Of a stretch of DNA of 64,000 nucleotides, positions 5,656 through 48,408 are shown one piece after another. The position numbers were made by a program, and so were the translations under genes. The notes under the pieces are model-generated. The model did not search any database and was not told the DNA's origin. It worked only from the letters and a program-made list of their open reading frames with translations. The DNA lies in the NCBI GenBank assembly GCA_030426765.1, contig JAUHXV010000002.1:62001-126000 (forward strand), given 5' to 3'. The DNA is from Bacteroidia bacterium (lineage in GTDB: Bacteria; Bacteroidota; Bacteroidia; Chitinophagales; Saprospiraceae). The first letter of the stretch is position 1; every line of letters starts with the position of its first letter.

Positions 5656-7440
5656 TTATGATTTGCCGGGAGCTTTTCTGGCTAACGGCGTATACGGTTT
5701 ACCCCCACCGGTAAATCCCGTGTTCTTATAAAACTCTACAAAGGTCAAACGCATAGGATGCACAAATGCACTTAAAGAGGCAAGCAACAAATTGGCTGTA
5801 TGCCCGATCACCAGCACCACGATAAATAACAGAATGCCTATGTAAGGAATGCCCTTAGCCGACAAAGCGATACTGTTGACCACCAGCCCCAGAATTGCAC
5901 TGGAGACGCCCAGGGCAAACAACCGGATATACGAAAGCAAATCTCCCATCACACCGGTGATATTGTACAGGTCTGTCAGGCCCATCCCGAACGATTTTAA
6001 CCAACCGCTTTCCGGACTTCCAAAGAATACAATCAACGCGACACCGATCCACACCATAACGCTACTCACTCCGGTGAAATACTGAGTCACATACAGATCC
6101 AGCAAACTCACACACAGGATAATCCATCCCATCTTCGACATCCCGAATTTCCATCCGCGAAACCTGACCTGCTTGTACACCTGTACCCCCATGCCAAAAA
6201 GAATCTGCACCAGCCCTACCGCCAATGCGAGTTGCAACATCTCAATCTGGTTGAGAAAAATATTTTTATGTGCAGTAAAAACCGGCAATTCAGCCATGGT
6301 CAACCCAAACAAGGTGCCGGAGAGATATCCCATCAGCATGGTCGACACACCGAACAACTGCACCAGGGTCAGGTAATCCCGAAATGGTCCTTTAATTTTG
6401 AGTTTCAAGACGGTGCCTGCTATCAGGAAGACAGCACCGTATCCCGCATCGCCCAGACAAAAGCCGAAAAAGAGGAAAAAAAACGGCGCGAAAAAAACCG
6501 TGAGGTCGAGTTCCCGATAGTCCGGTAAAGCATACAGCCGGCCAATCGGCTCGAATAAACGGGCAAAACGATTGTTTCGTAAAAGCACCGGCGGACGCTC
6601 TTCTTCAGAAACTTCAGGTATAGCATACACGATATTTTGTTCCTGCAGAAATGCCTGAAGAGTTTCTTCCGCAAACTCCGGACACCAGCCTTCCACCAGG
6701 ATCAGGCTCTCATGTTGCACAGATTCGGCATCGAGATGCGCCTGGTGTAAACGGAGTCGGTCCCAGGCTTTGTCGATGCCTTCGCGTAGTAAGTCTGTAT
6801 ACGTAGCTGCGTAAAAATCCAGCGCCTGATTGACGGCAAGAATCTTTTTTTCACAGTCTGTAAGGTGTTGTTCAAGTTCGCCAAGTGATATATGAGGAAG
6901 CGCCAGCGGCACGACAGGCAAGGCTTTGTTCTCATTGCGTTGGAATATTATGAAGTAAACAAACCCATTCTCTTCATGAACGATTTCTATCGGATGTTCA
7001 GCATACCATTCCTCTCGAAACTTGCGCTTCTGATGTCGGCAAAACCGAAGTGCCATTCCGGTGTTTTGTTCCAGCGCTCGGATGGCATCCCAGGAAAATT
7101 CTCCCCAGGGTTTGAGCATTTGAATTTGCACCTGCAATGCTGCTCTTTCTTTTTCGAGGGATTCAAGTTCTTTCTGTAGTTCCGGGATATCGGCTACCGT
7201 GGGTCGCGGGAAATCAGGATTTTCAGGGAGCGATGTTAGTTTTGTTTTTTTCCGCTGTCGAAACGTTTGCAACACCTGTTCTGCCAGAGCGATATCCGCA
7301 CTTTGCTTTTTAACCTCAGCATCTTCTGCGATGCGCCTGGAAATAAGATGTACGACACCCAGGTCCATCAGCTTTTCCATAAACGGGTCAAGCTCACGGT
7401 GGAATATTAAAAAACTATATTTTGCCATTGGGGCAATCAT
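5656..7440 (-). CDS. ntpI: V-type ATPase membrane stator subunit I (a-subunit)
   Basis: This 594-residue subunit has a long soluble, coiled-coil-rich N-terminal half (about 1-310) that contacts the peripheral stalks. The membrane half (about 311-580) has the usual 'DAGYG' loop and the essential arginine Arg506 in LLSYIRLFALG, which faces the rotor ring and drives ion exchange. The length is normal for bacterial NtpI (about 600-650). The start overlaps the end of subunit D by 4 bp (ATGA-type overlap), indicating translational coupling. An in-frame ATG four codons downstream is an alternative start. It acts in the cytoplasmic membrane with K to translocate H+ or Na+. Confidence 0.93.
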   Translation of the reverse strand: MIAPMAKYSFLIFHRELDPFMEKLMDLGVVHLISRRIAEDAEVKKQSADIALAEQVLQTFRQRKKTKLTSLPENPDFPRPTVADIPELQKELESLEKERAALQVQIQMLKPWGEFSWDAIRALEQNTGMALRFCRHQKRKFREEWYAEHPIEIVHEENGFVYFIIFQRNENKALPVVPLALPHISLGELEQHLTDCEKKILAVNQALDFYAATYTDLLREGIDKAWDRLRLHQAHLDAESVQHESLILVEGWCPEFAEETLQAFLQEQNIVYAIPEVSEEERPPVLLRNNRFARLFEPIGRLYALPDYRELDLTVFFAPFFFLFFGFCLGDAGYGAVFLIAGTVLKLKIKGPFRDYLTLVQLFGVSTMLMGYLSGTLFGLTMAELPVFTAHKNIFLNQIEMLQLALAVGLVQILFGMGVQVYKQVRFRGWKFGMSKMGWIILCVSLLDLYVTQYFTGVSSVMVWIGVALIVFFGSPESGWLKSFGMGLTDLYNITGVMGDLLSYIRLFALGVSSAILGLVVNSIALSAKGIPYIGILLFIVVLVIGHTANLLLASLSAFVHPMRLTFVEFYKNTGFTGGGKPYTPLARKAPGKS

Positions 7441-33245: not shown

Positions 33246-35555
33246 TCACCCCTTCACAAACGTCTTTGTGCCGATCACTTTCTTTTTGCTCATTAGAGAA
33301 AGAATATATGTACCGGGGGCCAGTGAAGAGATATCCAATGAGCGATCATGCTGATATAAAGCCTGCAGCATCGTCCTGCCCTGACTATCGTATATTTTCC
33401 ATGATTCTATGAGGTTGTGGTCTGTTTCATCAATGAGGAGTTCCAGTATGTGCTTTGCTGGATTTGGAAAGACAGAGAAATCAATCTGTTTCTGCGGGTT
33501 TTGTACATCTACAGCCGGGAGGATTACGGTATTCGTCTCATTTGTCAAAATAGGATCATTGAAATCAAAGAAAATATCAGCTTTATTTGGAATGCTTGTG
33601 CCATAATCATACGATGAAAATGGTTTTACCCTGAACTTTAGAAACCCATGGGAAGCAGCTTCATTTGTCGTACTGTCTGGCAGAAGTATATTCTTAAAGT
33701 CTGCTATCAGGAAAGATCCATCCGTGATCTCATAGGTATACGGATGACTGGAAGTGAGCATTTCGAGTGTCATCAGATCCAAATAAGCAGATAGCGGATC
33801 AATAATGCGAACGTTGAACGCTGTGTCCGTGCCAGTATTCTGGAATCGGATATGGTAATAGATAAACTCATCCTTTTCAACACGATCTGACTCCCTGCCA
33901 TCCTCATTGAAGGATCGCTTGTCATTCGGATCAAACGAGCCGCGATTAGTCTGGCATTCAATCGAAGATGTCTGTATGCCAGCACAGACATTTTCAGCGA
34001 TGAGTTCCCCTGACAAACAATGTTCCATGCCGAGTTCGGCCTGGCAGGATAGTGTAAAAAAGATTCGGAACACCAGATCAGTATTTAGTTCCAGAGTACC
34101 CAGGTCAAAAGAAATCGTTGTTGCATCAATTTGGTTGTGAGGAATAGACGCAGACTGGAATTCAAAAAACTGATCAAGCTGCAAAACCAAGGTAGTGCCG
34201 GTGCTTACCTGGGGCCCGGTGTTTCGCACGCGAACCGTATAATAGTTTTCAAAACATCGACGGAGTAAGGGAGTCGAAAAATCCAAACTTAGACTTGCAC
34301 AATTATCAGTGGCTTTTGCAAGGAAATCGACGTTAGCTGTCGATTGATTGTCATCTACTACAACCTGGATGTCATCTTCACAAAGAACCCACCCGGTGCC
34401 GGGTGGTTGAGCGCTGACCGTATACTCACCATTGGGTACCGAATAACTGAATGTTCCATCAGTCCTGCTGATACCTGAGTGAAAGAAATTTGGTCCTGCA
34501 ACGGTTACGTTCCAGAATGCCAAACCGGTTTCACCCGCATCCGGAATGCATTCCTGTTCCTTATCCTGATTTACCCGGCCACTCAGTATAGCAGGATATG
34601 TAAGCGTTCCGACGGACCTGAAAATACGGGTATTATCTATGATAGCAAAGACATGATCGTTTTCAGCATGTATGAAATATCGTTCACCATCCTGAGGGAG
34701 TCCGACATATGATATCGGTTGAAATTCAATTCCGTTAAAAACCTCAGCGTTACTCTGACCAAAATTGTACAGCGCTGATCCTGTAGTAAAAAATGACCAA
34801 GCATTGGTAGGATTGGGAAATGGACCAAGTGATTCAATATTTTGTCCAAAGTAGTATCGCAAGAGGAGAAATTCAGATTGCGGGCCGCTGTAGTCCTTTC
34901 CAAGCATATATACAGCACCATCCTCAGTAATCTGGCTATAAATAAACTCTATCTGGCCTGCCAGAATGTTCATATCGACAATTTCAACCTGACCAGTGAT
35001 CGAATTGATTTGGGCCACGATGCCAGCTCCGACAAAGGATGGATCAGCAACGTATATGTAGTTGTCAACCAGTCTTACAACAGGCTCCGATGAGAGTAAT
35101 AACTGACCAGCCCAGTGCCATAATTGTCCATTATCTAATGTATAGAAACAATGTCCTCCATAATCATAAATGAAGAGCACATCGTCATCCAATACATATA
35201 AATAGGTAAAATTGAACGGCGGAAAAATCCCATTGGGCCAATCAATGACGGTAAACGTCTCTCCATTGTTTTGGGAATGGAGTATCAGACTATCGTTTTT
35301 TGTATACAAGTCACCATCTGGTGAATGCTGCAAGTCATAGATTGAAGCCGCATTCTGGTTACGTAGAACCCATGAAGAACCTGTCACTGGTTTTCCAAAA
35401 AGGGATTCCTGTGTCACAGCACTTTGAAAACCTGTGGATGACTCATCGATGTCGAATAAAACTGTTCCGGGTATCGGGGTAATCTCTTCGAATATTATTT
35501 GAGCTTCAATAGGTAAATACAAAGCTAGGACCATAATTAGGGATAGGGTTCTCAT
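33246..35555 (-). CDS. Large T9SS-secreted protein with DUF7619-type and SdrD-B-like domains
   Basis: The protein has 769 residues, with a signal peptide at 1-18 (IEAQ). Residues about 20-320 are propeller-like; about 325-410 form a prealbumin/SdrD B-like module ('SGRVNQDKEQECIPDAGETG'). A conserved-repeat domain follows (about 415-520), then a DUF7619-type domain (about 535-680; 'GSFDPNDKRSFNEDGRES', 'FQNTGTDTAFNVRIIDPLS'), and a type A sorting domain ('FSVFPNPAKHILELLIDE'). This build is typical of T9SS cell-surface proteins. The ligand is unknown. Confidence 0.87.
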   Translation of the reverse strand: MRTLSLIMVLALYLPIEAQIIFEEITPIPGTVLFDIDESSTGFQSAVTQESLFGKPVTGSSWVLRNQNAASIYDLQHSPDGDLYTKNDSLILHSQNNGETFTVIDWPNGIFPPFNFTYLYVLDDDVLFIYDYGGHCFYTLDNGQLWHWAGQLLLSSEPVVRLVDNYIYVADPSFVGAGIVAQINSITGQVEIVDMNILAGQIEFIYSQITEDGAVYMLGKDYSGPQSEFLLLRYYFGQNIESLGPFPNPTNAWSFFTTGSALYNFGQSNAEVFNGIEFQPISYVGLPQDGERYFIHAENDHVFAIIDNTRIFRSVGTLTYPAILSGRVNQDKEQECIPDAGETGLAFWNVTVAGPNFFHSGISRTDGTFSYSVPNGEYTVSAQPPGTGWVLCEDDIQVVVDDNQSTANVDFLAKATDNCASLSLDFSTPLLRRCFENYYTVRVRNTGPQVSTGTTLVLQLDQFFEFQSASIPHNQIDATTISFDLGTLELNTDLVFRIFFTLSCQAELGMEHCLSGELIAENVCAGIQTSSIECQTNRGSFDPNDKRSFNEDGRESDRVEKDEFIYYHIRFQNTGTDTAFNVRIIDPLSAYLDLMTLEMLTSSHPYTYEITDGSFLIADFKNILLPDSTTNEAASHGFLKFRVKPFSSYDYGTSIPNKADIFFDFNDPILTNETNTVILPAVDVQNPQKQIDFSVFPNPAKHILELLIDETDHNLIESWKIYDSQGRTMLQALYQHDRSLDISSLAPGTYILSLMSKKKVIGTKTFVKG

Positions 35556-36489: not shown

Positions 36490-37104
36490 CTACCATCGGT
36501 AACTGTTCAGAAAATTCACCACCTCGACGCGCGTGTGCACCCCCAGCTTGTTGTAGAGGTTCTTCAGGTGTGTTTTGATCGTATTTTCTGAATTATGACG
36601 TTGCTCAGCAATGTCGGGTATGGAAAGACCCTTGTCTACTTCAAGCAGGATCTCATATTCCGTTTTGGTAAGGCCCTGCACAAGATCCTTGTTGATCAGC
36701 GTGAGGGAAGGGGTGTGTTGAGCCTGTTTCCTGATCGCCCCGGCCATCGCCATTTCGATGGCTGGCGCAAGATCGGCTTCTTTGAAAGGTTTGACGAGAT
36801 ATGTGGAGGGAAATGTGTCTGCGGCGCTGGCTACAGTCTCCCGGTCCGAATAGGAGGTCAGAAATATAAACGGGATACCGACCTCTTCATTGATGCGATG
36901 CGCCAGATCAATACCGGTCATCTCGCCTTCCAGGTTGATATCGAGCAGGGCAAGGTCTATCCGCTCCCCATGCAAATATTCAAGCGCTCGATCTGCCCGG
37001 TGTGTCGGCCCTAACACTCTGTATCCCTGCCCTTCGAGCGCCAGCATGAGGTCGATAGCGATCGTGGGGTCATCTTCTACGACAAGAATATTCAATTGGG
37101 CCAT
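36490..37104 (-). CDS. LuxR-type response regulator
   Basis: The protein has 204 residues. The receiver domain (about 4-120) has acidic residues 'VVEDDPTIAID', the phospho-acceptor Asp in 'LALLDINLEGEMTGID' (about residue 55), Thr/Ser in 'IFLTSYS' and Lys in 'YLVKPF'. The HTH (about 145-200) is LuxR-like ('LSIPDIAEQRHNSENTIKTH'). It is coupled 2 bp downstream of the TPR histidine kinase, which presumably phosphorylates it. Residues predict an active transcription factor. Confidence 0.93.
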   Translation of the reverse strand: MAQLNILVVEDDPTIAIDLMLALEGQGYRVLGPTHRADRALEYLHGERIDLALLDINLEGEMTGIDLAHRINEEVGIPFIFLTSYSDRETVASAADTFPSTYLVKPFKEADLAPAIEMAMAGAIRKQAQHTPSLTLINKDLVQGLTKTEYEILLEVDKGLSIPDIAEQRHNSENTIKTHLKNLYNKLGVHTRVEVVNFLNSYRW

Positions 37105-37106
37105 GA

Positions 37107-39218
37107 TTAGGCGATGCGCGTTTGTAATGAATTGTGTTGTGATTCGAATTGCAGGATCACATGGCAGCCATCGGAATTTTCGATACGGATATCTGCCTCC
37201 AGTCTTTCGGCAAATGAGTAAATCAGTTGCATGCCCAGTGAGCGGCTTCGCCGAGGCAGACTATTGATCGGAAGCCCCGGACCATTGTCCCGGACAGCCA
37301 GGGTGATCAGCGAGCCTTCGTGCGTTAGTTCAAAAAGCAAAGCGGGCTCGGGATTTTCTCTAAAGGCATACTTAAATGTATTTGTTATCAGCTCGTTGGC
37401 GATCAGTCCAAGTGGCACCAGAGTGTCTATATCCAACAGGAAATTATCGATCCTTTGGGTCAGATCGAGTTTGTTGTCCGGGCCGAGATAGGAATTGACA
37501 AGGTGCTCTATGAGTTCGGTAAAATACGGGCGCACCCGCACGCTCCTGAGGTCCTGGTTGTCGTAGAGAGTTTTGTGCAGCAAGGAGATCGAATGAACAC
37601 GTTCCTTCCCGGTATTGATCGCCTGGATGACCGCGGCGTCCTTTTCGAACTTACCCTGGAGATTGAGCAGTGAGGAGACTACCTGCAGGTTGTTCTTGAC
37701 GCGGTGGTGGATTTCCTTCATCAACATCGTATTCTGGTCCAAGGCCTTTCTCAGATCTGCGTTGACACGCTGCAACTGCTGGTTGGCGCGTTGCTTGATG
37801 CGGAAAGCAAACGCCACACCAAGGATAGCCATCAGGGCCAGGATCAAACCGCCGACCAGGGCCCAGATCTTGCGGCGCTCTTTTTCGATCTGCAGCTGAT
37901 TGATCAGTGTTTCGTTTTTCAATCTGGCAATCTCGGCATTCTTGAGATCTGTCTGGTATTTTGCCTCCAGGTCATATATCAATTGTTTCTGATCGGCCCG
38001 CGTCAGGTATACCTGTATATCCTCGATACTGTCGGCAAGTGCATTGGCAGATCGCCAGTTTTCAGTTTCGGTATAGAGTGCCCGAAGTTCACGATAGGCC
38101 TTGAGCTTTGTCGCCTTGCTATTGCGTTCATGCGCATAGTTCAGGAAATTGTCGAGCTGATGCCGTGCCTCCACAAAACGCCCTTCAGCCATAAACAATC
38201 GTACTCTGGCAGTATAATAATCCTCCCGGTTGTCTTTGAATGGGATCAGTAGGAACAATGAATCCGCTTTGCTGACATACCTGCGCGCAGCTGCGGTCTT
38301 TCCCTTTTTGAGTTCTAAAAGTGCCAGGAAGGAGTACGCAGAAAGGAGTGCACTTTCATGCTTCCGTTTGATCGCCAGTGGGATCGCCAGCTCAAAGTGG
38401 ACCTGGGCGAGTGAGTCCAATCCCTTCCGGTAGTACAGTTCCCCGAGTCTGGCATTTCCCGTGGCAAGAGTGCGCGAGAGATTATGGTCTTGACTGATTG
38501 CGAGGCACTTCAGTTCATATTCGATCGCCTTGTCTAAGTCCCCGATCTGGCGGTAGACCTGGGCGAAACGGACAAAGATCTCCGCCCGTCTGATCACGTT
38601 ATCCTGGGGAACAAATGGAATAGACCTTAGCAGGATGTCGAGTGCCGCGTGGAATTTATTTTCCCGTATCAGCAACTGGAATTTCTGCATATAAAACGTG
38701 GACCTCCATGTACTGTCCAGCGCTACCCCGAGCACAAAGGCCGAATCGATGTAATACCGCGCCGAGTCAAATTGCACCTGTTGCAGATAGCCGACCCCGA
38801 TATCTCCCAGGGTATGCGCAAGCAGGATGGGATCACCGGTATAGGGCAACGATTTCAACCCATACTTAATCTGGTTGGTCACATCTCCCTGCAATTTGTA
38901 CAAGAAGGCCAGGCTGGCATATCCATTGGCGATCACATCGTCATTGCCGATTTGCTTGCCGAATTCAGCCATCTGCTCGTATAACACCAATCCTGTATCC
39001 GGATCGTCATGGATGAGCTCCTCGATATAATAGAGGTAGATGAAGGCAGCCTCCACGCTGTCAACGGAGGCGGGATCGGCGATCATTTGTTCAAACGCCA
39101 CTTGCTTCTCACTGCGTTCATCAGTCTGTGCATGTCCCGACACATACACCACAAGGCAACACAGCAGAGTCAGACAGGTGTTGATGTAAAGAGCGGGTAC
39201 CATCCTAAATAGGTTCAT
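37107..39218 (-). CDS. TPR-containing HisKA_2 sensor histidine kinase
   Basis: The protein has 703 residues: a signal peptide, then an about 400-residue periplasmic TPR array ('GNARLGELYYRKGLDSLAQV' is one unit), one TM helix (about 445-467), a short coiled coil, a HisKA_2 domain with phospho-accepting His in 'MKEIHHRVKNNLQVVSSLL', and a HATPase_c domain ('LIANELITNTFKYAF', 'VRDNGPGLPI'). HisKA_2 kinases with TPR sensors are abundant in Bacteroidota. It is the middle gene of a three-gene operon, 15 bp after the fibre gene and 2 bp before the regulator, so it may sense the state of the fibre or envelope. Confidence 0.93.
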   Translation of the reverse strand: MNLFRMVPALYINTCLTLLCCLVVYVSGHAQTDERSEKQVAFEQMIADPASVDSVEAAFIYLYYIEELIHDDPDTGLVLYEQMAEFGKQIGNDDVIANGYASLAFLYKLQGDVTNQIKYGLKSLPYTGDPILLAHTLGDIGVGYLQQVQFDSARYYIDSAFVLGVALDSTWRSTFYMQKFQLLIRENKFHAALDILLRSIPFVPQDNVIRRAEIFVRFAQVYRQIGDLDKAIEYELKCLAISQDHNLSRTLATGNARLGELYYRKGLDSLAQVHFELAIPLAIKRKHESALLSAYSFLALLELKKGKTAAARRYVSKADSLFLLIPFKDNREDYYTARVRLFMAEGRFVEARHQLDNFLNYAHERNSKATKLKAYRELRALYTETENWRSANALADSIEDIQVYLTRADQKQLIYDLEAKYQTDLKNAEIARLKNETLINQLQIEKERRKIWALVGGLILALMAILGVAFAFRIKQRANQQLQRVNADLRKALDQNTMLMKEIHHRVKNNLQVVSSLLNLQGKFEKDAAVIQAINTGKERVHSISLLHKTLYDNQDLRSVRVRPYFTELIEHLVNSYLGPDNKLDLTQRIDNFLLDIDTLVPLGLIANELITNTFKYAFRENPEPALLFELTHEGSLITLAVRDNGPGLPINSLPRRSRSLGMQLIYSFAERLEADIRIENSDGCHVILQFESQHNSLQTRIA

Positions 39219-39233
39219 GGTTACACAATATCG

Positions 39234-42200
39234 CTATTCATCTTCAGATAACCTGCTCAGGGCTTCCTCCAGTCGATCCATGCGCTCAGTAAGTGTTTGA
39301 ATCTCTGCATCCTTGTCCGTGAGCGCATCATTGAGATGACCGATGGTTTCCTGTTGTTCCTGGATGGCTTTGATCGCGATCACACCAAATCCTGCATAAT
39401 CCAGGAGATAGCGGTCTGCCTCATTATCATAGGTGACGAGTTCCGGGTAAATCTCGGCCACATCCTGGGCGACAAGACCAACATATTGTTGCCCGGTGTT
39501 GTCCGCTTTGAAGGAATACGTGAGGGGTTGCAATTTGGCAAAGGTTTCCCAGTCGAAATGGAGGTCCCGGACATTTTCCTTCAGGCGTCTGTCAGATAGG
39601 GCGCTGTAGGCTCCCGACACATCATCAAAGGTGCCGATGATCCCGACGGAGTCCATATAGATCCTTAGGAATCCGTTACTGCTGGAGATGTAAAACCTCG
39701 CCCATTCTTCTGACACGGTGTTTTCCAGTTTCAGTCCGCCCGAGCCTCCGCTGTTGATATGTTTGATATGTAGATCGCTTTCAGGATTATTGGTGCGGAT
39801 CCCCACTTTCTGGTTCTGCGTGAGCGTCATGATATTAACGTCGTGGTGCCGGATATCAATGTTGCCCGTACCGTCCGCATTGATAAATGCGTTGTTGCCG
39901 CCATGTCCGAATTCGATAAAATCCGTTTCGCTTTCCTGATAAGCACCGCGCAAGGTACCGACTACCGAAAGCGCTTCTTCTGGCGTATGGGTGCCGATCC
40001 CGGTCCTGCCATCCTTGAGGACTGTTACAGCGTTAGCACGATTGCCAGAACTACTGCCATTCCCGATCTCGAAGATCGGATCGGTATCTATCCAGGCCGT
40101 ATCATTGCCTCCTCCGATATTGTATCGGCCAAGTGCGAAGGTGGCGAAGGCATCAGCTTTAGTGAGCAGTCCAATTGCCATTGAATTCGTGGCATTGGCT
40201 TCAGCAAAGTTTCCCAGGGCGAAAGCTGCACCACCGGAAGCAGACGCGAAATTACCGGCGGCAAATGAAGCCCAGCCGGTGGCCTCAGAAAGCTGTCCGG
40301 AAGCAAAGCTATAATTCCCTGAAGCCTTGGTATTCCAGCCGGCGGCAAACGAAGTCACACCCAGCCACTCTGTGTTCCAGTCTTCTGAATCCCAAACGCG
40401 ACCGGCCCTGAATGCCGCTTTGCTTTCGTCAAAGAAAAACAAACTGGCACGGTGTTCGACTCCATCTATCGGTAGGGAGTCAAGTCCAAACACAAAATCA
40501 TCGAATGTTCCGCCAGTATTGTAGACTGCGTTGCCGTTCAGGGCAAACTGGCACACTTCGTCATTCTCCCAGTGAAGAGCCCCGGATCCGTCAGTAGCTA
40601 GCACCTGCCCTGACAGTCCATCAGCATTTGGAAAGGTATAGTCATTGAATGACACGGTCCCATTCTTGAGGACCGTGACCGCGTTGGCACGATTAGCAGC
40701 ACTGCTGCCAATCCCGATCTCGAAGACCGGATCGGAAGCCGTCCAGGTGGATGCGTTGCCACCCCCGACATTGTAGCGCCCAAGGGAGAATGAAGCATAC
40801 GCATCGGCGTCCGTTTCGATACCGGTGGCAAATGCACCATTACCCTCTGCATCCGTCGCCAGTCCTGTGGCAGTAGCGTGATCACCGGACGCAGATGTCA
40901 GTTGGCCGGCAGCAAAGCTGTAGTCGCCACCGGCATCACTTGAAAATCCAGTCACCATTGAATAGTCGCCGGAAGCTGTGGCAAAGCTTCCGAAGGCAGT
41001 GGAAGCGGTCCCGGTCGCATTGGTGAGTTCGCCTGCAGCAAATGAAGATGACCCGTTGGCATCTGTTGAGTTACCAAAAGCAGCTGAGAACGCACCGGAT
41101 GCCTGTGTGGCGAGGCCCGCAGCAAAAGACAGGTCCCCGATATTCGCCGGGCTCCAGCGATCGCCGCCACCGGGTTGGCCCGCTCGAAAGGCACCGCCTT
41201 TGGACTGATCGAAAAAGAACAGCGTATCGGATACGTTTCCTGTCGGTAGCTCATCGGCTCCAAAAACAAAGTCGTCTTGATCCGGCCCGGTACTGCGAAT
41301 CACACCGCTGGAACTTTCAAATATGCCGAGATCTTCCTGCCACGATAGCTGACCTGCCCCGTCAGTGGCCAGTACCTGGCCGGAGACTCCTGCGGAATTA
41401 GGGAAAGCGTATTCTTTGAAGGACACCGTACCGTCTTTCAGAACCGTCAGTGCGTTGGCGGGTGTGATCAACGTGCCGATACCAATCTCAAAAATGGGAT
41501 CGGTTTCGATCCATGCATTCGGGTTGCCTCCACCAACATTGAAAGCGCCAAAGACACTGGCGTATTGGGCATCTGCTTTTGTCCATTGCCCTTGGGCAAA
41601 GGTACCCTGGCCATTCGCCTGGGACAGGAACCCTGTCGCCAATGCGTTGGATCCCGCAGCCAGCGTACTCTGTCCTGTCGAGAATGCGCCGCTTCCCGTG
41701 GCCTTGCTTTGGAGACCATGCGCGGCTGCATAGTCGCCGGTGGCAAACGAAGCCCATCCGTGCGCTACCGAATGATCACCGCTGGCCTTGGTATTCCTTC
41801 CAGTCGCGAATGAATAGTTGCCGATAGAATCCGGTGCCCAGTTGAAAGAATTGTCAAGTGCTCCGGCACGAAAAGCGGATTTGCTTTCATCAAAAAACAA
41901 TAAGTTTTCGAGGTAGAATGACCCGTTTTGCGGCAGAGAGTCCATACCAAAGACAAAGTCGTCATCCGTCGATCCCGAGCTGCGTACGGCACCATTGTAT
42001 TGCTCAAAGATTCCGACGTCCACGATACTGCCTCCCCCGTTTGAGAGCATGATGGTGTCCCCTGATTTGGAGATGGTTTGGAGTTCATTGGACGGGTCAG
42101 CATCCGCATCGTTCACGTCATCCGTGTCATCCGCGAATCCGGATGGGATACCTCCCAGCGTTGACCATGTTTCAATTTCGTTGGCCGGATCATTGTCGGC

Positions 42201-42878
42201 GTCATCGACCTCATCGGTGAAGGAGCCGCCTCCATCCGAGAGGGTCACTGTGTTCCCGGTTTTGGAGATGGTCTGCAACTCGTTGGCCGGATTATTGTCT
42301 GCGTCATCGACCTCATCAGTGAAGCTCCCGCCGCCGTTTGAAAGGGTCACCGTATTCCCCGTTTTGGAGATGGTCTGCAGTTCGTTAGTTGGGTTATTGT
42401 CGGCGTCATCGACAGAGACACAAATCGGCATCCCGATAGCATTGAATCCTTTCAGGACCTCTCCTGTCGGGCACACCTGGTTGCTGGGCACGAAATCAGA
42501 AGCGTCGTAGGTTGTGTTGGCATCAATGAAGGTGCCGCCGCCGTCTGAGAGGGTCACCGTATTCCCTGTTTTGGAGATGGTCTGGATCTCATTGAGGGGA
42601 TTCGCGTCATCGTCTATACGCACATCTGCCCAGTCCGAGCCGTTGAAATACCAGAAGGACATGGTAAGCGTATCAAACACCAGAAGTCCGGTAGCCGGTG
42701 TGGGTAGGTTCAGGCGTTGAGTTGTACTCATACGCGGAATGAGCAGTCCTTTGTCAGTCGCTGAAAGATCCAGAATGGCAGAGGTGTCCGGGGTTGTCGT
42801 GCCGATACCTACACTTTGTCCGAAACCTGCATGGGCGGCCAGAAGCAGCAGGAATATGAGTATGTGTCTTGAAGTCAT
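39234..42878 (-). CDS. YadA-head-like fibre protein with C-terminal S74 chaperone domain
   Basis: The protein has 1214 residues with a signal peptide at 1-20 (GFGQ). Residues about 95-290 hold five 'NPANELQTISKTGNTVTLSD' repeats. Three large modules follow; each starts 'DDFVFGMDSLP', has 'FFDESKSAFRAG', and contains runs of 'SFAAGLATQASGAFSAAFGN'-type 14-residue left-handed helix repeats like the YadA head. Residues about 1095-1170 form an intramolecular chaperone/S74 peptidase domain ('SDRRLKENVRDLHFDWETFA') with the Ser and Lys of the self-cleaving site, followed by a coiled coil. A trimeric fibre that self-trims is predicted. Co-transcribed with the kinase and regulator. Confidence 0.88.
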   Translation of the reverse strand: MTSRHILIFLLLLAAHAGFGQSVGIGTTTPDTSAILDLSATDKGLLIPRMSTTQRLNLPTPATGLLVFDTLTMSFWYFNGSDWADVRIDDDANPLNEIQTISKTGNTVTLSDGGGTFIDANTTYDASDFVPSNQVCPTGEVLKGFNAIGMPICVSVDDADNNPTNELQTISKTGNTVTLSNGGGSFTDEVDDADNNPANELQTISKTGNTVTLSDGGGSFTDEVDDADNDPANEIETWSTLGGIPSGFADDTDDVNDADADPSNELQTISKSGDTIMLSNGGGSIVDVGIFEQYNGAVRSSGSTDDDFVFGMDSLPQNGSFYLENLLFFDESKSAFRAGALDNSFNWAPDSIGNYSFATGRNTKASGDHSVAHGWASFATGDYAAAHGLQSKATGSGAFSTGQSTLAAGSNALATGFLSQANGQGTFAQGQWTKADAQYASVFGAFNVGGGNPNAWIETDPIFEIGIGTLITPANALTVLKDGTVSFKEYAFPNSAGVSGQVLATDGAGQLSWQEDLGIFESSSGVIRSTGPDQDDFVFGADELPTGNVSDTLFFFDQSKGGAFRAGQPGGGDRWSPANIGDLSFAAGLATQASGAFSAAFGNSTDANGSSSFAAGELTNATGTASTAFGSFATASGDYSMVTGFSSDAGGDYSFAAGQLTSASGDHATATGLATDAEGNGAFATGIETDADAYASFSLGRYNVGGGNASTWTASDPVFEIGIGSSAANRANAVTVLKNGTVSFNDYTFPNADGLSGQVLATDGSGALHWENDEVCQFALNGNAVYNTGGTFDDFVFGLDSLPIDGVEHRASLFFFDESKAAFRAGRVWDSEDWNTEWLGVTSFAAGWNTKASGNYSFASGQLSEATGWASFAAGNFASASGGAAFALGNFAEANATNSMAIGLLTKADAFATFALGRYNIGGGNDTAWIDTDPIFEIGNGSSSGNRANAVTVLKDGRTGIGTHTPEEALSVVGTLRGAYQESETDFIEFGHGGNNAFINADGTGNIDIRHHDVNIMTLTQNQKVGIRTNNPESDLHIKHINSGGSGGLKLENTVSEEWARFYISSSNGFLRIYMDSVGIIGTFDDVSGAYSALSDRRLKENVRDLHFDWETFAKLQPLTYSFKADNTGQQYVGLVAQDVAEIYPELVTYDNEADRYLLDYAGFGVIAIKAIQEQQETIGHLNDALTDKDAEIQTLTERMDRLEEALSRLSEDE

Positions 42879-43165: not shown

Positions 43166-43291
43166 GGCAACGTTTCAGGCTACCCGCTATCCGAAGGATG
43201 CTTGTAAGTGGGTTAGCCAGTATAAAAGTTTGAGATTCCTTGCATAGTGTTGGATCGCTGTTTACAGGCTGGTGAGTAGCCGCTGTTATGC
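43166..43291 (-). other. attC-like site after higBA
   Basis: Minus-strand order: GCATAAC (43291-43285), 3-nt spacer, GGCTACTC (43281-43274), centre, GGGTAGCC (43185-43178), 6-nt spacer, GTTGCC (43171-43166). AAC/GTT and GGCTAC/GTAGCC pair. The length of 126 bp is in the range known for attC sites, and the TAA stop of higA (43286-43288) lies inside the first box. The rest of the 407-bp gap down to 42879 shows no gene. Confidence 0.52.
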
Positions 43292-43585
43292 CGCGTTTGA
43301 TTCCAGTGGTTGTATGGCTCCAAGTTCTTTTTGATTATTCTTCTTTTCTTCTTCAAGGTCATAATCAGCTTGGAGACCCAGCCAAAATTTAGCGGTTGTG
43401 CCAAAATATTTGGCTAATCTCAACGCAGTGTCGGCTGTAACCCTTCGGTTACCTTTAATGATTTCGCTTATTCTGGTTTGCGGAATAAAGGTTTCTTTGG
43501 AGAGTCGATAGGCTGAGATTCCCATTGGATTAAGAAATTCCTCTTTCAGGACTTCACCAGGATGAATATTTTTAAGTGCAGCCAT
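43286..43585 (-). CDS. higA: HigA antitoxin
   Basis: The product has 99 residues and begins with the family signature 'NIHPGEVLKEEFLNPMGISA', then the XRE-type HTH 'RLSKETFIPQTRISEIIKGN'. The C-terminal 'ALRLAKYFGTTAKFWLGLQA' is diagnostic for the HigA/VapI group. It is transcribed after higB with an 11-bp gap, the typical toxin-first order of HigBA. The last codons and stop lie in an attC-like repeat, which probably defines the cassette end. Confidence 0.93.
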   Translation of the reverse strand: MAALKNIHPGEVLKEEFLNPMGISAYRLSKETFIPQTRISEIIKGNRRVTADTALRLAKYFGTTAKFWLGLQADYDLEEEKKNNQKELGAIQPLESNAA

Positions 43586-43596
43586 AGTTCGATAGT

Positions 43597-43878
43597 TTAA
43601 TGGTAATCAATTATGCTAACGTTTGTGGCATTGCCACTTTGCCAATTGAAAATGATCCGCCATTGCTGATTGATCCGGATACTGTAATACCCTTTCCACT
43701 TTCCCTTCAGCTTTTCAAGCCGATTGGCCGGAGGAATGCGCAGGTCATTAAGATCCTGAGCATTGTTTAGCATCCGGAGCTTTCTTCTGGCAAGTTGCTG
43801 GATGGAAGTAGGCAGCTTGGTTGACCGCTCACCAGCCCAAATCTTCTCTGTTACGCCGTCACCAAAGGAACGGATCAT
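43597..43878 (-). CDS. higB: HigB ribosome-dependent mRNase toxin
   Basis: This 93-residue RelE-fold toxin of the plasmid-maintenance killer group carries 'RSFGDGVTEKIWAGERSTKL', 'IQQLARRKLRMLNNAQDLND', and the core 'LKGKWKGYYSIRINQQWRII' with the conserved Arg/Trp, ending 'VSIIDYH'. It is full length with no stops, in contrast to the toxin at 28.7-29.0 kb. It cleaves translated mRNA unless bound by HigA. Confidence 0.93.
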   Translation of the reverse strand: MIRSFGDGVTEKIWAGERSTKLPTSIQQLARRKLRMLNNAQDLNDLRIPPANRLEKLKGKWKGYYSIRINQQWRIIFNWQSGNATNVSIIDYH

Positions 43879-44889: not shown

Positions 44890-47800
44890 TCACCTGACGA
44901 TCGTAACATTACCAACTTTTGATTGCAGCTGTCCATCCGGGGATTCGAAAATAATCCTATACACAAAGACACCGGGGTTTAAGGGTTGGTTGTGCCACGA
45001 TCCATTCCACGCATGAGCGGGATCATTGGTCTGAAAATGCTCGTCCTGAAAAACCAGGTTTCCCCAGCGATCAAATATTTCGATTAACGCAATTTCCTGC
45101 GCAATCAGGCGACTACTGATCATAAACAAGTCGTTGATTTGATCATTATTAGGGGAAAATACATTCGGGACATACAACACGGAAGATCGGTCCACAAGAA
45201 TCTGCATATCATCTGAAGCCACGCACCCAAACAAGTTGCTCACGGTAACCGAATAGGCAGAAGTTATTAGAGGAATAAATGTCTGGGTCAGACACGTAGC
45301 ACAATTGATATTTTCAATACCACTCCATTGGATGTTAGCCAGTGAATCATACGGCACATTCACAACAGCCTGGATAACCGCGGTATCCCCCAGGGGTATC
45401 ATTTGATCCTCCCCCAGATTGACACTCAGCGGGGCAGGGGCAGCGATCAAGATCATTTCCTGTACCTGGCAATCATTGGCATCCAATGCCGTCAGTTGGA
45501 AGGAACCGCCGGCAAGATTTTCAAACAGCGGAGTAGCTTGCCAGGAGGAATCATTTAGCGCAAAGAGAAACGGGCCGGTTCCTCCATTAGGATGGATTTC
45601 TATAGTGCCATCTTCATCATCAAAACATGCCGGAGGTGAAACCGTGAACGTGATGCCGAAAAGATCGGGTTCCTCCAATTGCACAACAGATGAAATGGTG
45701 CATCCATTGCCATCTGTCATCGTTACTGCATATTGCCCGGATCCCAGCCCTGAAATAGACGCATCCGTTTGTCCGGTAGACCATATGTATTCAAAAGGTG
45801 ATGTTCCATCTCCTGTGGCCTCTATGCTTCCATCCATGCCTGCATAGCAACTGATTGCCTCTCCATTATAATCTGAAGTGATCACCAATGAGAGCGTCGG
45901 TAATGCAAATAAGTTGGTGACTTCCCGAATAATGCTGTCGCAACCTTGTGATGAAGTCAATATTAAAAACTCGACACCGACTAAATTAGGATCGCAGGTT
46001 TGGTTAACGATGACGGTAGTGTCCGGAGGTGCCAACCCAATATGAAGCGTGACCAGACTATCACACCCATATTGATTGACATGATACGCGTTAAAGGTTC
46101 CGGTCTCATTTGGATCGCAAGTGAAAGAATCCTGTAGCGTGTGATGCACGGGCAACAGATCTACCACGGTAGTGATGACACTGTCGCATCCATACTGATT
46201 GAAAAAGTTTTGGGTGAAGATCCCGGATAGATTCGAATCACAGGTAGTTTCAAACAGTTCAATGCTGTCGGTAGGGAGCAACAAGAGGTCGCTGATAACT
46301 ATGCTATCACATGTATATTGGTTGATAAGATTGTGTATCTGCATTCCTGCAAGGGAAGGATCGCATGTGGTGCCGGAAATCAGCGTGGTATCTGGTGGAA
46401 CAAATACCTGTGTGGTGACAACAAAGCTATCACAAAGACCAGCGGTCATTAAATGTTGGGTCATTGTTCCCGCACTATTGGCATCGCAGGTATAGAGCTG
46501 TACAAAGGTTGAATCCAGCGGCTGATATCCGATCGTGGAAAGGACGACACTATCACAACCATCAGCGTCTGACAAAGTGAGTGAAAATATTCCCGTGTCA
46601 AGCGCATTGCAGGAAACGAATGACAGCCAGGTGGTATCGATCGCAGGAAGGCTGTCCGTAATTGTATAATATTCTGTGACGGTACAGTTGGAATTCTGTG
46701 TAATGGTCACGGTATAGAGACCTGCGCTCAGGTTGAACAACTGACTGGTCGTATCTCCGGTAGACCATACGTAGGTATACAGGCCCGGCTGAAGGATGGA
46801 AAGCTGTATAGATCCGTTAGCGGACTGGCATGATGAGTTTGGGGACAGGAGGCTATTGACCGAGAAGGTGCCGGACACAGTTGTCACGACAATGGTATCG
46901 ATGGTTTCACAACCGTTGAATCCGGTAACCGTCACGATGTAGTTACCCGCTGTAAGAGAGGAGATGTCTTGGGTGGTCATTCCATTTGACCAAAGGTATT
47001 CGTAGGGGCTTTCGCCGCCTATCACGGAAAGGTTTATACTGCCGGTTGGAAAGCCGCAATTACTGTGCGTTACATCAGCTGTCACCTGGTGAGTCAGCGT
47101 GTGATCTTCTATCGTATACACCTGATTGATCTCGCACGCGCCGGCGGTGATCGTGACACGATAGGTGCCACCCACGATATCAAATAGATCTTCTGTGAAC
47201 TCTCCTTCAAGCCATTCAAACTCATAATTACCCTCCGGTGCGGGTGTTAAATCAATATATCCATTTGGCGGGTCACAACCGGTATTGTCCATAACCATTC
47301 CGGTGACCGTAAAGAGCGAGTCAATATTGGGTATCAGCACCTCGAGTGTCGCCTGACATCCGCCAAAACCAGTCACCGTAACGGTACTGATTCCGGGAGG
47401 AAGGGACATAGGATCCTCTAAGGTTTCGCCATTCGACCAAAGGAAGGTAAAAGGTTCAAGTCCTCCGATGACTGTGAGATCCGCTTTGCCTTCCGACAAT
47501 TCACAATAGGTCGGCGTGACTGTTGCAGAGAGCATGCTGATTGGGCTGGAATGGTCCAGCACTTCAAATGAGGCGATCGCCTGGCACGGGGATGGCCCGG
47601 TGATGGTAACCGTATACAAACCGGGCTGCAGGTCAGACAAATCCTGGGAGGTGGATCCATTGGACCATTCATAGGTGTAAAAAAGCTGGTTGGGGAAAAC
47701 GATAACGTCGATTTCACCACTGCCTTCCGCACAAGCACTATCGGCTATAATGACGTCATCGAGGATGATGGTGTCTATATTCGGTACGGTGAATGTCTGG

Positions 47801-48408
47801 ACAATCGGACATGTCCAGCCTACGTTATTCGATCTGGTAATCGTGACGGTATAGTCACCGGCGGCTAATTGGTCCCGGCATTCTGAATTCGAGCCATTGT
47901 CCCATTCAATGTTGACCTCCTCAACATCAGGGTATTCTCCGGGGCTAATCGTCAGACAAATTTCTCCAATGGATTGACCGCAATAGGTAGGTGTAATCTC
48001 GGGTGTGGCTTCCGGGCTCACCGGTAAAACTCCGGGATACATGCCTCCGCAATATATCGTACATCCTGAAGTATCTATGATCTGGAGACAATACAAAGCT
48101 AATCCCAGTACCATAACAGTATCTCCATCATTAGGCCCTATAAAAATCGGGTCAAAACCAGAGGAATCGACTAGTGTCCAAATGAATTGCTCCGGAACAG
48201 AACTGCCTGACCAAGTTGCCCAGAGCATAGAGGTATCATCTTTACAGAAATTGTCAAAATCCCAATGAAGCCCACCTAAATATTCGTTTGCCGGATGACA
48301 AGGGTCGCCAAGGCAAGGCGGACATACTGGTTGCCCTTGGGCATAAATCGGTTGGTCACTTAGGGCGAGGAAGAAAAACAGGAGTGCTATGCAGATCTCC
48401 TTAAACAT
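44890..48408 (-). CDS. Gliding-motility-type surface adhesin with SprB repeats and CHU C-terminus
   Basis: The protein has 1172 residues with a signal peptide at 1-23 (IYAQ). Residues about 130-600 contain SprB-type repeats such as 'YEWSNGSTSQDLSDLQPGLY' followed by TVTITG. About 600-830 comprises shorter cysteine-paired units 'DSTFVQLYTCDANSAGTMTQ' and relatives. The last about 85 residues form the gliding motility-associated C-terminal domain ('YVPNVFSPNNDQINDLFMIS', 'LIEIFDRWGNLVF', 'NPGVFVYRIIF'), a T9SS type B signal. It is probably a large adhesin moved on or released from the surface. Confidence 0.9.
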   Translation of the reverse strand: MFKEICIALLFFFLALSDQPIYAQGQPVCPPCLGDPCHPANEYLGGLHWDFDNFCKDDTSMLWATWSGSSVPEQFIWTLVDSSGFDPIFIGPNDGDTVMVLGLALYCLQIIDTSGCTIYCGGMYPGVLPVSPEATPEITPTYCGQSIGEICLTISPGEYPDVEEVNIEWDNGSNSECRDQLAAGDYTVTITRSNNVGWTCPIVQTFTVPNIDTIILDDVIIADSACAEGSGEIDVIVFPNQLFYTYEWSNGSTSQDLSDLQPGLYTVTITGPSPCQAIASFEVLDHSSPISMLSATVTPTYCELSEGKADLTVIGGLEPFTFLWSNGETLEDPMSLPPGISTVTVTGFGGCQATLEVLIPNIDSLFTVTGMVMDNTGCDPPNGYIDLTPAPEGNYEFEWLEGEFTEDLFDIVGGTYRVTITAGACEINQVYTIEDHTLTHQVTADVTHSNCGFPTGSINLSVIGGESPYEYLWSNGMTTQDISSLTAGNYIVTVTGFNGCETIDTIVVTTVSGTFSVNSLLSPNSSCQSANGSIQLSILQPGLYTYVWSTGDTTSQLFNLSAGLYTVTITQNSNCTVTEYYTITDSLPAIDTTWLSFVSCNALDTGIFSLTLSDADGCDSVVLSTIGYQPLDSTFVQLYTCDANSAGTMTQHLMTAGLCDSFVVTTQVFVPPDTTLISGTTCDPSLAGMQIHNLINQYTCDSIVISDLLLLPTDSIELFETTCDSNLSGIFTQNFFNQYGCDSVITTVVDLLPVHHTLQDSFTCDPNETGTFNAYHVNQYGCDSLVTLHIGLAPPDTTVIVNQTCDPNLVGVEFLILTSSQGCDSIIREVTNLFALPTLSLVITSDYNGEAISCYAGMDGSIEATGDGTSPFEYIWSTGQTDASISGLGSGQYAVTMTDGNGCTISSVVQLEEPDLFGITFTVSPPACFDDEDGTIEIHPNGGTGPFLFALNDSSWQATPLFENLAGGSFQLTALDANDCQVQEMILIAAPAPLSVNLGEDQMIPLGDTAVIQAVVNVPYDSLANIQWSGIENINCATCLTQTFIPLITSAYSVTVSNLFGCVASDDMQILVDRSSVLYVPNVFSPNNDQINDLFMISSRLIAQEIALIEIFDRWGNLVFQDEHFQTNDPAHAWNGSWHNQPLNPGVFVYRIIFESPDGQLQSKVGNVTIVR

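What the first reader, a model, noticed from the sequence alone, without database searches (positions are those of the whole stretch)
36490..42878. Fibre-kinase-regulator operon: YadA-head/S74 fibre encoded with a TPR histidine kinase and LuxR-type regulator
The 1214-residue fibre gene, the kinase and the regulator are spaced by 15 and 2 bp. The fibre joins YadA-like head repeats to a self-cleaving S74 chaperone, a phage-tail-fibre module, yet it has a Sec signal peptide and no phage neighbours. Tight linkage suggests that the kinase senses the assembly or binding state of its own surface fibre.
Basis: partly seen in the sequence, partly recalled or inferred. Interest (0 to 1): 0.6.

Follow-up and report, generated by a model that had tools for sequence, protein, structure and literature searches.

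The report
Surface fibre operon with two-component regulator
A bacterium of the Saprospiraceae carries a probably self-processing surface fibre gene tightly packed with a sensor kinase and its regulator, and some related bacteria keep such genes side by side, in shuffled order, more often than chance, so the pair probably controls when the fibre is made.

Summary
The trio is real and exactly where stated: a 1214-aa fibre (signal peptide, three YadA-head modules, C-terminal S74 chaperone with the Ser1095/Lys1100 dyad), a 703-aa TPR sensor kinase (HisKA_2) and a REC-LuxR regulator, spaced 15 and 2 bp. The link recurs: in 100 genomes of the same order, 11 kinase loci besides the window's (9 genomes) have an S74 gene within 5 kb against 1.2 expected, 10 of 11 on the same strand, in varied gene order; a wider family search added two loci. 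In the own genome 3 of 4 S74 genes sit beside two-component systems of three classes. Against generality: 0 of 80 kinase loci from a named scan carry S74, most S74 genes and kinases are unlinked, and linkage to other kinase classes is weak. Best reading: a sense-and-display unit in which the two-component system sets fibre production, as FimS/FimR does for fimbriae. That the kinase senses its own fibre is possible but unsupported. Prophage or injection-system origin is unlikely. New variant of a known kind.

The parts
39234..42878 (-). Fibre gene, 1214 aa: signal peptide, four copies of a linker motif (QTISK, residues 99, 168, 202, 267), three YadA-head modules, C-terminal S74 chaperone and long terminal helix
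42819..42878 (-). Sec-type signal peptide region of the fibre (about residues 1-20; hydrophobic 5-25)
   Evidence: hydropathy only
41439..41963 (-). Head module 1 (about residues 306-480), opens with DDFVFG, head motifs at 356 and 370
   Evidence: module ends approximate
40668..41276 (-). Head module 2 (about residues 535-737); head motifs 14 residues apart; best Pfam YadA_head stretch 621-645
   Evidence: module ends approximate
39999..40502 (-). Head module 3 (about residues 793-960), head motifs at 843, 857, 871
   Evidence: module ends approximate
39432..39596 (-). Peptidase_S74 intramolecular chaperone (residues 1095-1149) with Ser1095 and Lys1100, invariant in 18 of 18 aligned domains
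37107..39218 (-). Sensor histidine kinase, 703 aa
37899..39110 (-). All-helical TPR-type sensor region (about residues 37-440), predicted periplasmic
37791..37874 (-). Second membrane helix (residues 449-476)
37488..37715 (-). HisKA_2 domain (502-577) with EIHHRVKNNLQ conserved in 14 of 14 aligned
37143..37442 (-). HATPase domain (about 593-692)
36490..37104 (-). Response regulator, 204 aa: receiver plus LuxR/GerE HTH; Asp55 and Lys105 invariant in 12 of 12 aligned

Best explanation
The three genes form one sense-and-display operon. The kinase reads an envelope or environmental cue with its periplasmic TPR region and phosphorylates the LuxR-type regulator, which sets transcription of the operon and hence the amount of fibre. 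The fibre is exported by Sec, trimerises with the help of its C-terminal S74 chaperone, which then cuts itself off, and is shown on or outside the outer membrane as an adhesin-like fibre. Shown here: gene arrangement, domains, intact catalytic residues, recurrence of the neighbourhood. Inferred: co-transcription, cognate phosphotransfer, direct regulation, trimerisation, self-cleavage, surface location and adhesion.
For: Gaps of 15 and 2 bp on one strand. Eleven further kinase loci in 9 of the 100 genomes with S74 within 5 kb against 1.2 expected, Poisson P 7e-8, or 5e-6 counting one per genome; 10 of 11 same strand. Order is shuffled (fibre-kinase-regulator, kinase-regulator-fibre, fibre-regulator-kinase, divergent), so the linkage outlives rearrangement. 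Kin of this kinase in 398 family genomes added two loci within 5 kb, G178:C134 and G295:C53; 0.12 expected, P 0.006. The fibre's best full-length match lies by a HisKA_2 kinase in G178 (61%, with a second S74 gene between it and the kinase), G054 and G295, and is second best in G001. In G000 3 of 4 S74 domains lie within 3 kb of a receiver domain, P 1.8e-4, or 0.004 for the three others alone, with sensors of three classes. A control family, T9SS tails, shows no clear excess near these kinases: 34 of 131 against a loose 11-35 expected of 118. Kinase and regulator residues intact; S74 dyad intact. FimS/FimR precedent.
Against: 0 of 80 named kinase loci have S74. Most members of both families are unlinked. 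Of 11 new kinase kin, those of G287, G168 (two), G126, G171, G376, G195 and one of G178 have no S74 near, the last lying at a contig end. Linkage of S74 to two-component genes outside HisKA_2 is marginal: of 60 loci 5 within 3 kb, P 0.23; 8 within 4 kb, P 0.055; 11 within 5 kb, P 0.011; adjacency 11 of 73 against 6 of 105 secreted genes, P 0.067, and same-strand adjacency 5 of 73 against 4 of 105, P 0.49. No Bacteroidota-type promoter upstream of the fibre and no shared inverted repeat in 8 upstream regions. With the S74 end alone as query, the best match is not the HisKA_2-linked copy in G001, G039, G054 or (by 0.4 bits) G295.
Confidence: 0.55

Rival explanations
1. The kinase senses the assembly or binding state of its own fibre (for example unassembled fibre or the released S74 trimer bound by the periplasmic TPR region) and adjusts fibre production by feedback.
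For: Sensor region is all-helical, TPR-matched and predicted periplasmic, a protein-binding fold; fibre and sensor would meet in the periplasm; a FimS mutagenesis paper proposes a polypeptide ligand for its TPR sensor (passages). Linkage recurs.
Against: 119 of 131 such kinases have no S74 gene found nearby (contig ends hide some); S74 genes also pair with Y_Y_Y LytS-type and hybrid kinases without a TPR match in G000.
Confidence: 0.13
2. The linkage is incidental: fibre genes and two-component genes settle in the same variable chromosomal regions, and the kinase regulates something else.
For: Gene order is highly variable, linkage needs about nine gains or losses on the kinase tree, was not found in the 80 named loci and is weak for other kinase classes. 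A toxin-antitoxin pair lies upstream of the fibre, a hint of a variable region.
Against: Ninefold excess over chance with 10 of 11 on the same strand, best fibre match by a kinase in three of four genomes that have both, and no clear excess for T9SS-tail genes at the same kinases.
Confidence: 0.27
3. The fibre is a prophage or extracellular contractile injection system (eCIS) tail fibre with a nearby two-component system.
For: S74 is a phage tail fibre module; PHROGs tail fibre match 4.8e-18. An eCIS survey describes S74 genes, and GerE genes with a kinase gene upstream, among eCIS shell domains (passages).
Against: No Phage_sheath_1 match in the own genome; no other tail protein among 10 window proteins scanned; in phage records no match covers 80% of the fibre and the 10 listed of 51 cover at most 15%, all at the S74 end; N-terminal signal-peptide-like stretch.
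Confidence: 0.02

Closest known systems
FimS/FimR of Porphyromonas gingivalis (controls FimA and Mfa1 fimbriae)
   Same: Same phylum; periplasmic TPR sensor kinase with two membrane helices and a regulator that together control surface fimbriae, signal unknown (passages read). That FimR is of LuxR type and that the genes lie near the fimbrial cluster is recalled.
   Different: Kinase core here is HisKA_2, and NCBIfam FimS matches only weakly in the TPR part (E 5.7e-4, 18.3 bits against a cut-off of 600); the output is an S74-chaperoned YadA-head fibre, not a fimbrilin polymer.
S74 / intramolecular chaperone autoprocessing (ICA) proteins: phage endosialidases and tail fibres, MYRF
   Same: C-terminal S74 with Ser and, five residues on, Lys, as S578/K583 of MYRF; the model's top Foldseek hits are two 3gw6 chains, though only at E 0.17 and 0.23.
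   Different: Chromosomal, with signal peptide and YadA-head modules, no tail genes found; cleavage untested.
YadA-type trimeric autotransporter adhesins
   Same: YadA_head repeats with 14-residue period.
   Different: No anchor domain among the Pfam matches; C-terminus is S74.
PhyK-type HisKA_2/HWE kinases
   Same: Best NCBIfam match of the kinase core, 1.6e-38.
   Different: 132.6 bits against a cut-off of 750; TPR sensor; partner is REC-LuxR, not PhyR (PhyR as the usual partner is recalled).

Membership tests
Peptidase_S74 / ICA | S74 profile match over cut-off | tested here: met
   46.6 bits, cut-off 22
Peptidase_S74 / ICA | Ser-Lys catalytic dyad spaced by five | tested here: met
   S1095, K1100; invariant in 18 of 18 aligned; pattern S[DS]xRxK in 80 of 98 distinct domains
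Peptidase_S74 / ICA | Trimerisation and self-cleavage | not testable with these tools
   needs protein
YadA-type trimeric autotransporter | YadA_head repeats | tested here: met
   44.2 bits, cut-off 25
YadA-type trimeric autotransporter | C-terminal beta-barrel anchor | tested here: not met
   no anchor family among Pfam matches at E 0.001; so not filed as a member
FimS | NCBIfam FimS equivalog over cut-off 600 | tested here: not met
   18.3 bits
FimS/FimR-like control of surface fibres (works like) | TPR sensor kinase plus regulator encoded beside the surface fibre | tested here: met
   adjacency for FimS itself recalled
FimS/FimR-like control of surface fibres (works like) | Regulator controls the fibre | not testable with these tools
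   motif and promoter searches negative
Two-component system | Phospho-acceptor His, ATP-binding core, receiver Asp intact | tested here: met
eCIS or contractile prophage tail | Sheath protein in the genome | tested here: not met
   0 matches for PF04984 in G000; genome 95% complete

The most novel reading that the evidence does not exclude
In Saprospiraceae, S74-chaperoned fibres are a common output module plugged into interchangeable envelope-sensing two-component systems (TPR-HisKA_2/LuxR, LytS-type/LytTR, hybrid/AraC), and in the TPR class the S74 trimer released on each successful assembly is read in the periplasm by the kinase, so the cell counts its finished fibres.
Probability: 0.07. 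Interest if true: 0.75.

Novelty: new variant of a known kind. Interest (0 to 1): 0.4.

Why it matters
S74 genes are common in this order (68 of 100 genomes), yet my searches of the held open-access library showed no paper on what the non-phage ones do there (listings; subscription journals are mostly not held). A recurring tie to sensor kinases gives a first handle: it predicts regulated display, names the regulators to delete, and offers a natural test of whether a self-releasing chaperone can report assembly. It would also extend FimS/FimR-style control from fimbriae to a fibre class known from phages.

Tried and rejected
Prophage or injection-system fibre: judged unlikely. Shared regulator-binding repeat in 8 upstream regions: none above shuffles. 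Bacteroidota promoter upstream of the fibre: none; sigma-70-type (13 against 9.5) and terminator-like (9 against 8.8) scans no better than shuffles. Co-occurrence of S74 and HisKA_2 across genomes: no association (37 both, 31 and 14 one alone, 18 neither, P 0.39), so the signal is in position, not presence. Generality: 0 of 80. A general link between S74 and all two-component genes: weak. I had doubted one kinase call in L193 as an antisense ORF; Pfam shows a real hybrid kinase, so it stays; without its two cases adjacency would be 9 of 71. Neighbour census: of 96 same-strand neighbours listed, 47 of at least 120 aa belong to the 63-kinase group; I scanned 45 of these: S74 and Por_Secre_tail in 4 each. 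S74 fold search: right family on top but weak, monomer only. Sequence search of solved structures: a phage long tail fibre subunit, 6f45, E 0.0064. Literature: listings; passages only of PMC11053733, PMC1974823, PMC3742443 and PMC8213781.
Full report
OBSERVATION. Three genes lie head to tail on the - strand with gaps of 15 and 2 bp. The fibre matches YadA_head and Peptidase_S74, the kinase HisKA_2, HATPase_c and TPR families, the regulator Response_reg and GerE. The fibre is built of a signal-peptide-like start, four copies of a linker motif (residues 99, 168, 202, 267), three head modules that each open with DDFVFG (306, 535, 793) and carry head motifs mostly 14 residues apart, and the S74 end. 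Ser1095 and Lys1100 are invariant in 18 of 18 aligned S74 domains, the spacing given for MYRF S578/K583 and phage endosialidases (passages). The kinase model (14-row alignment, mean pLDDT 80) shows an all-helical region from about 37 to 440, a long helix through the second membrane segment and the catalytic core; the EIHHRVKNNLQ block is shared by 14 of 14 aligned kinases and the receiver Asp55 and Lys105 by 12 of 12 regulators.

WHERE. The genome (G000, 3.98 Mb, 147 contigs) shares its family, f1, with G052 and G014. Two contigs of these have the lengths of named Saprospiraceae MAG contigs (G052:C117, 23215, CALLXF010000117.1; G014:C1, 285829, JABSSL010000001.1), so f1 is taken to be Saprospiraceae (inference).

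DOES IT RECUR? In 100 genomes (the own one, 60 others of the family, 39 of the order) S74 occurs in 68 (323 matches) and HisKA_2 in 51 (132 matches). The surroundings of 130 of the 132 HisKA_2 places are held, the two missing ones being weak (checked). In-box profiles gave 131 distinct kinase ORFs of at least 300 aa there; 12, the window's included, have an S74 gene within 5 kb between domain centres. Without G000 that is 11 loci in 9 genomes (G001, G005 twice, G016, G017, G034 twice, G039, G042, G054, G055) against 1.2 expected from counts and genome sizes, P 7e-8, or 5e-6 counting one per genome. S74 genes can be clustered, so the P values are approximate; contig ends make the observed count a lower bound. 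One S74 match (L089) is weak, 42 bits. By gene maps eight of the 12 touch the kinase-regulator unit directly, two (L085, L089) are parted from it by small LuxR-HTH ORFs (L085 also by a short opposite-strand ORF, and its full regulator is divergent), two (L094, L067) by one or two other genes.

CONTROLS. Presence of the two families is not associated across genomes (P 0.39). The kinase tree (131 rows, quick method, 38 of 128 inner branches open) puts the window kinase next to those of G054 and G001, both linked; all 12 linked kinases lie on one side of a supported branch with 63 rows (12 of 63 against 0 of 68, P 8e-5); nine changes are needed, shuffles 11.7, 0 of 500 as low.

WIDER SETS. Among 398 family genomes the kinase search at E 1e-62 gave 11 kinases in 8 genomes not seen before. 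S74 lies next to that of G178:C134 (convergent) and, in G295:C53, between two kinases, about 3.6 kb from one and 5.9 kb from the other; the other 8 kinases have none near, one of them at a contig end (distances by hand from listed places). The fibre's best full-length match is the one by a HisKA_2 kinase in G178, G054 and G295, second in G001; in G178 that match is one gene further out, a second S74 gene lying between. In G039 the best (C647) is not at a listed HisKA_2 place, and the second (C338) lies by a Reg_prop/HisKA_3 kinase and a REC-LuxR gene; the contig of the G008 match is too short to tell. With the S74 end alone the linked copy is best in G178 only. The link is therefore a facultative feature, seen so far in this family only.

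OTHER FIBRES. In G000, C37 repeats the plan with another kinase: YadA-head/S74 fibre, Y_Y_Y LytS-type kinase, REC-LytTR, gaps 70 and -17; C142 has a hybrid kinase with AraC-type output 162 bp before an S74 gene; at C72 no such gene was seen. With 24 receiver domains in the genome chance gives 1.8e-4 for 3 of 4, partly post hoc, 0.004 for 2 of the other 3. In 60 S74 loci (57 picked from the listing after leaving out those already seen to be linked, and the 3 others of G000) the excess is small: 5 (3 kb), 8 (4 kb) and 11 (5 kb) with a receiver domain, against 3.3, 4.2 and 5.1 expected, P 0.23, 0.055 and 0.011. Adjacency to any two-component gene: 11 of 73 S74 genes, against 12 of 235 other genes, P 0.009, or 6 of 105 secreted ones, P 0.067; on the same strand 5 of 73 against 8 of 235, P 0.20. 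Pfam bears out the two-component calls behind the 11; they are hybrid, LytS-type and HisKA_3 kinases or a lone regulator. This wider pattern is a lead, not a result.

MECHANISM. Several sensor architectures beside one kind of product fits the fibre as output (inference). The nearest precedent is FimS/FimR: a TPR sensor whose point mutants change FimA level, and a regulator that binds the mfa1 promoter (passages). I could not find a binding site or promoter, so regulation rests on neighbourhood and precedent. Self-sensing remains open.

VERDICT. A real, recurring gene neighbourhood, seen in one family; new variant of a known kind; interest 0.4.

Noticed in passing
window 43286-43878 (-): HigA-type antitoxin gene (NCBIfam 4.5e-31) preceded by a RelE/YoeB-like toxin gene (PHROGs toxin 1.8e-30; NCBIfam under cut-off), just upstream of the fibre.
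   Followed up: no
window 44890-48408 (-) and 33246-35555 (-): Two large exported proteins flank the region: an SprB-repeat protein with a type B T9SS sorting domain and a DUF7619/DUF11 protein with a type A one.
   Followed up: no
L064:8250-8516, L085:6851-7060 and 7126-7341, L089:1177-1401, L218:9369-9587: Small stand-alone LuxR-type HTH ORFs (69-88 aa) sit beside S74 genes and two-component genes in several genomes.
   Followed up: no
L214:6097-11444 (G000:C37): A second fibre-kinase-regulator run in the same genome, with a LytS-type kinase and LytTR regulator.
   Followed up: partly
L063:10648-12336, L195, L200:6426-8639, L186:7432-10200: Some S74 proteins end in what looks by eye like a T9SS sorting tail beyond the S74 domain, which would leave the tail on the released chaperone if it cuts.
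   Followed up: no
G295:C53:87558-98019: One S74 gene lies between two HisKA_2 kinase-regulator pairs.
   Followed up: partly
L193:589-8403 (G005:C113): S74 genes lie on both sides of a hybrid kinase with TPR repeats and AraC-type output.
   Followed up: no
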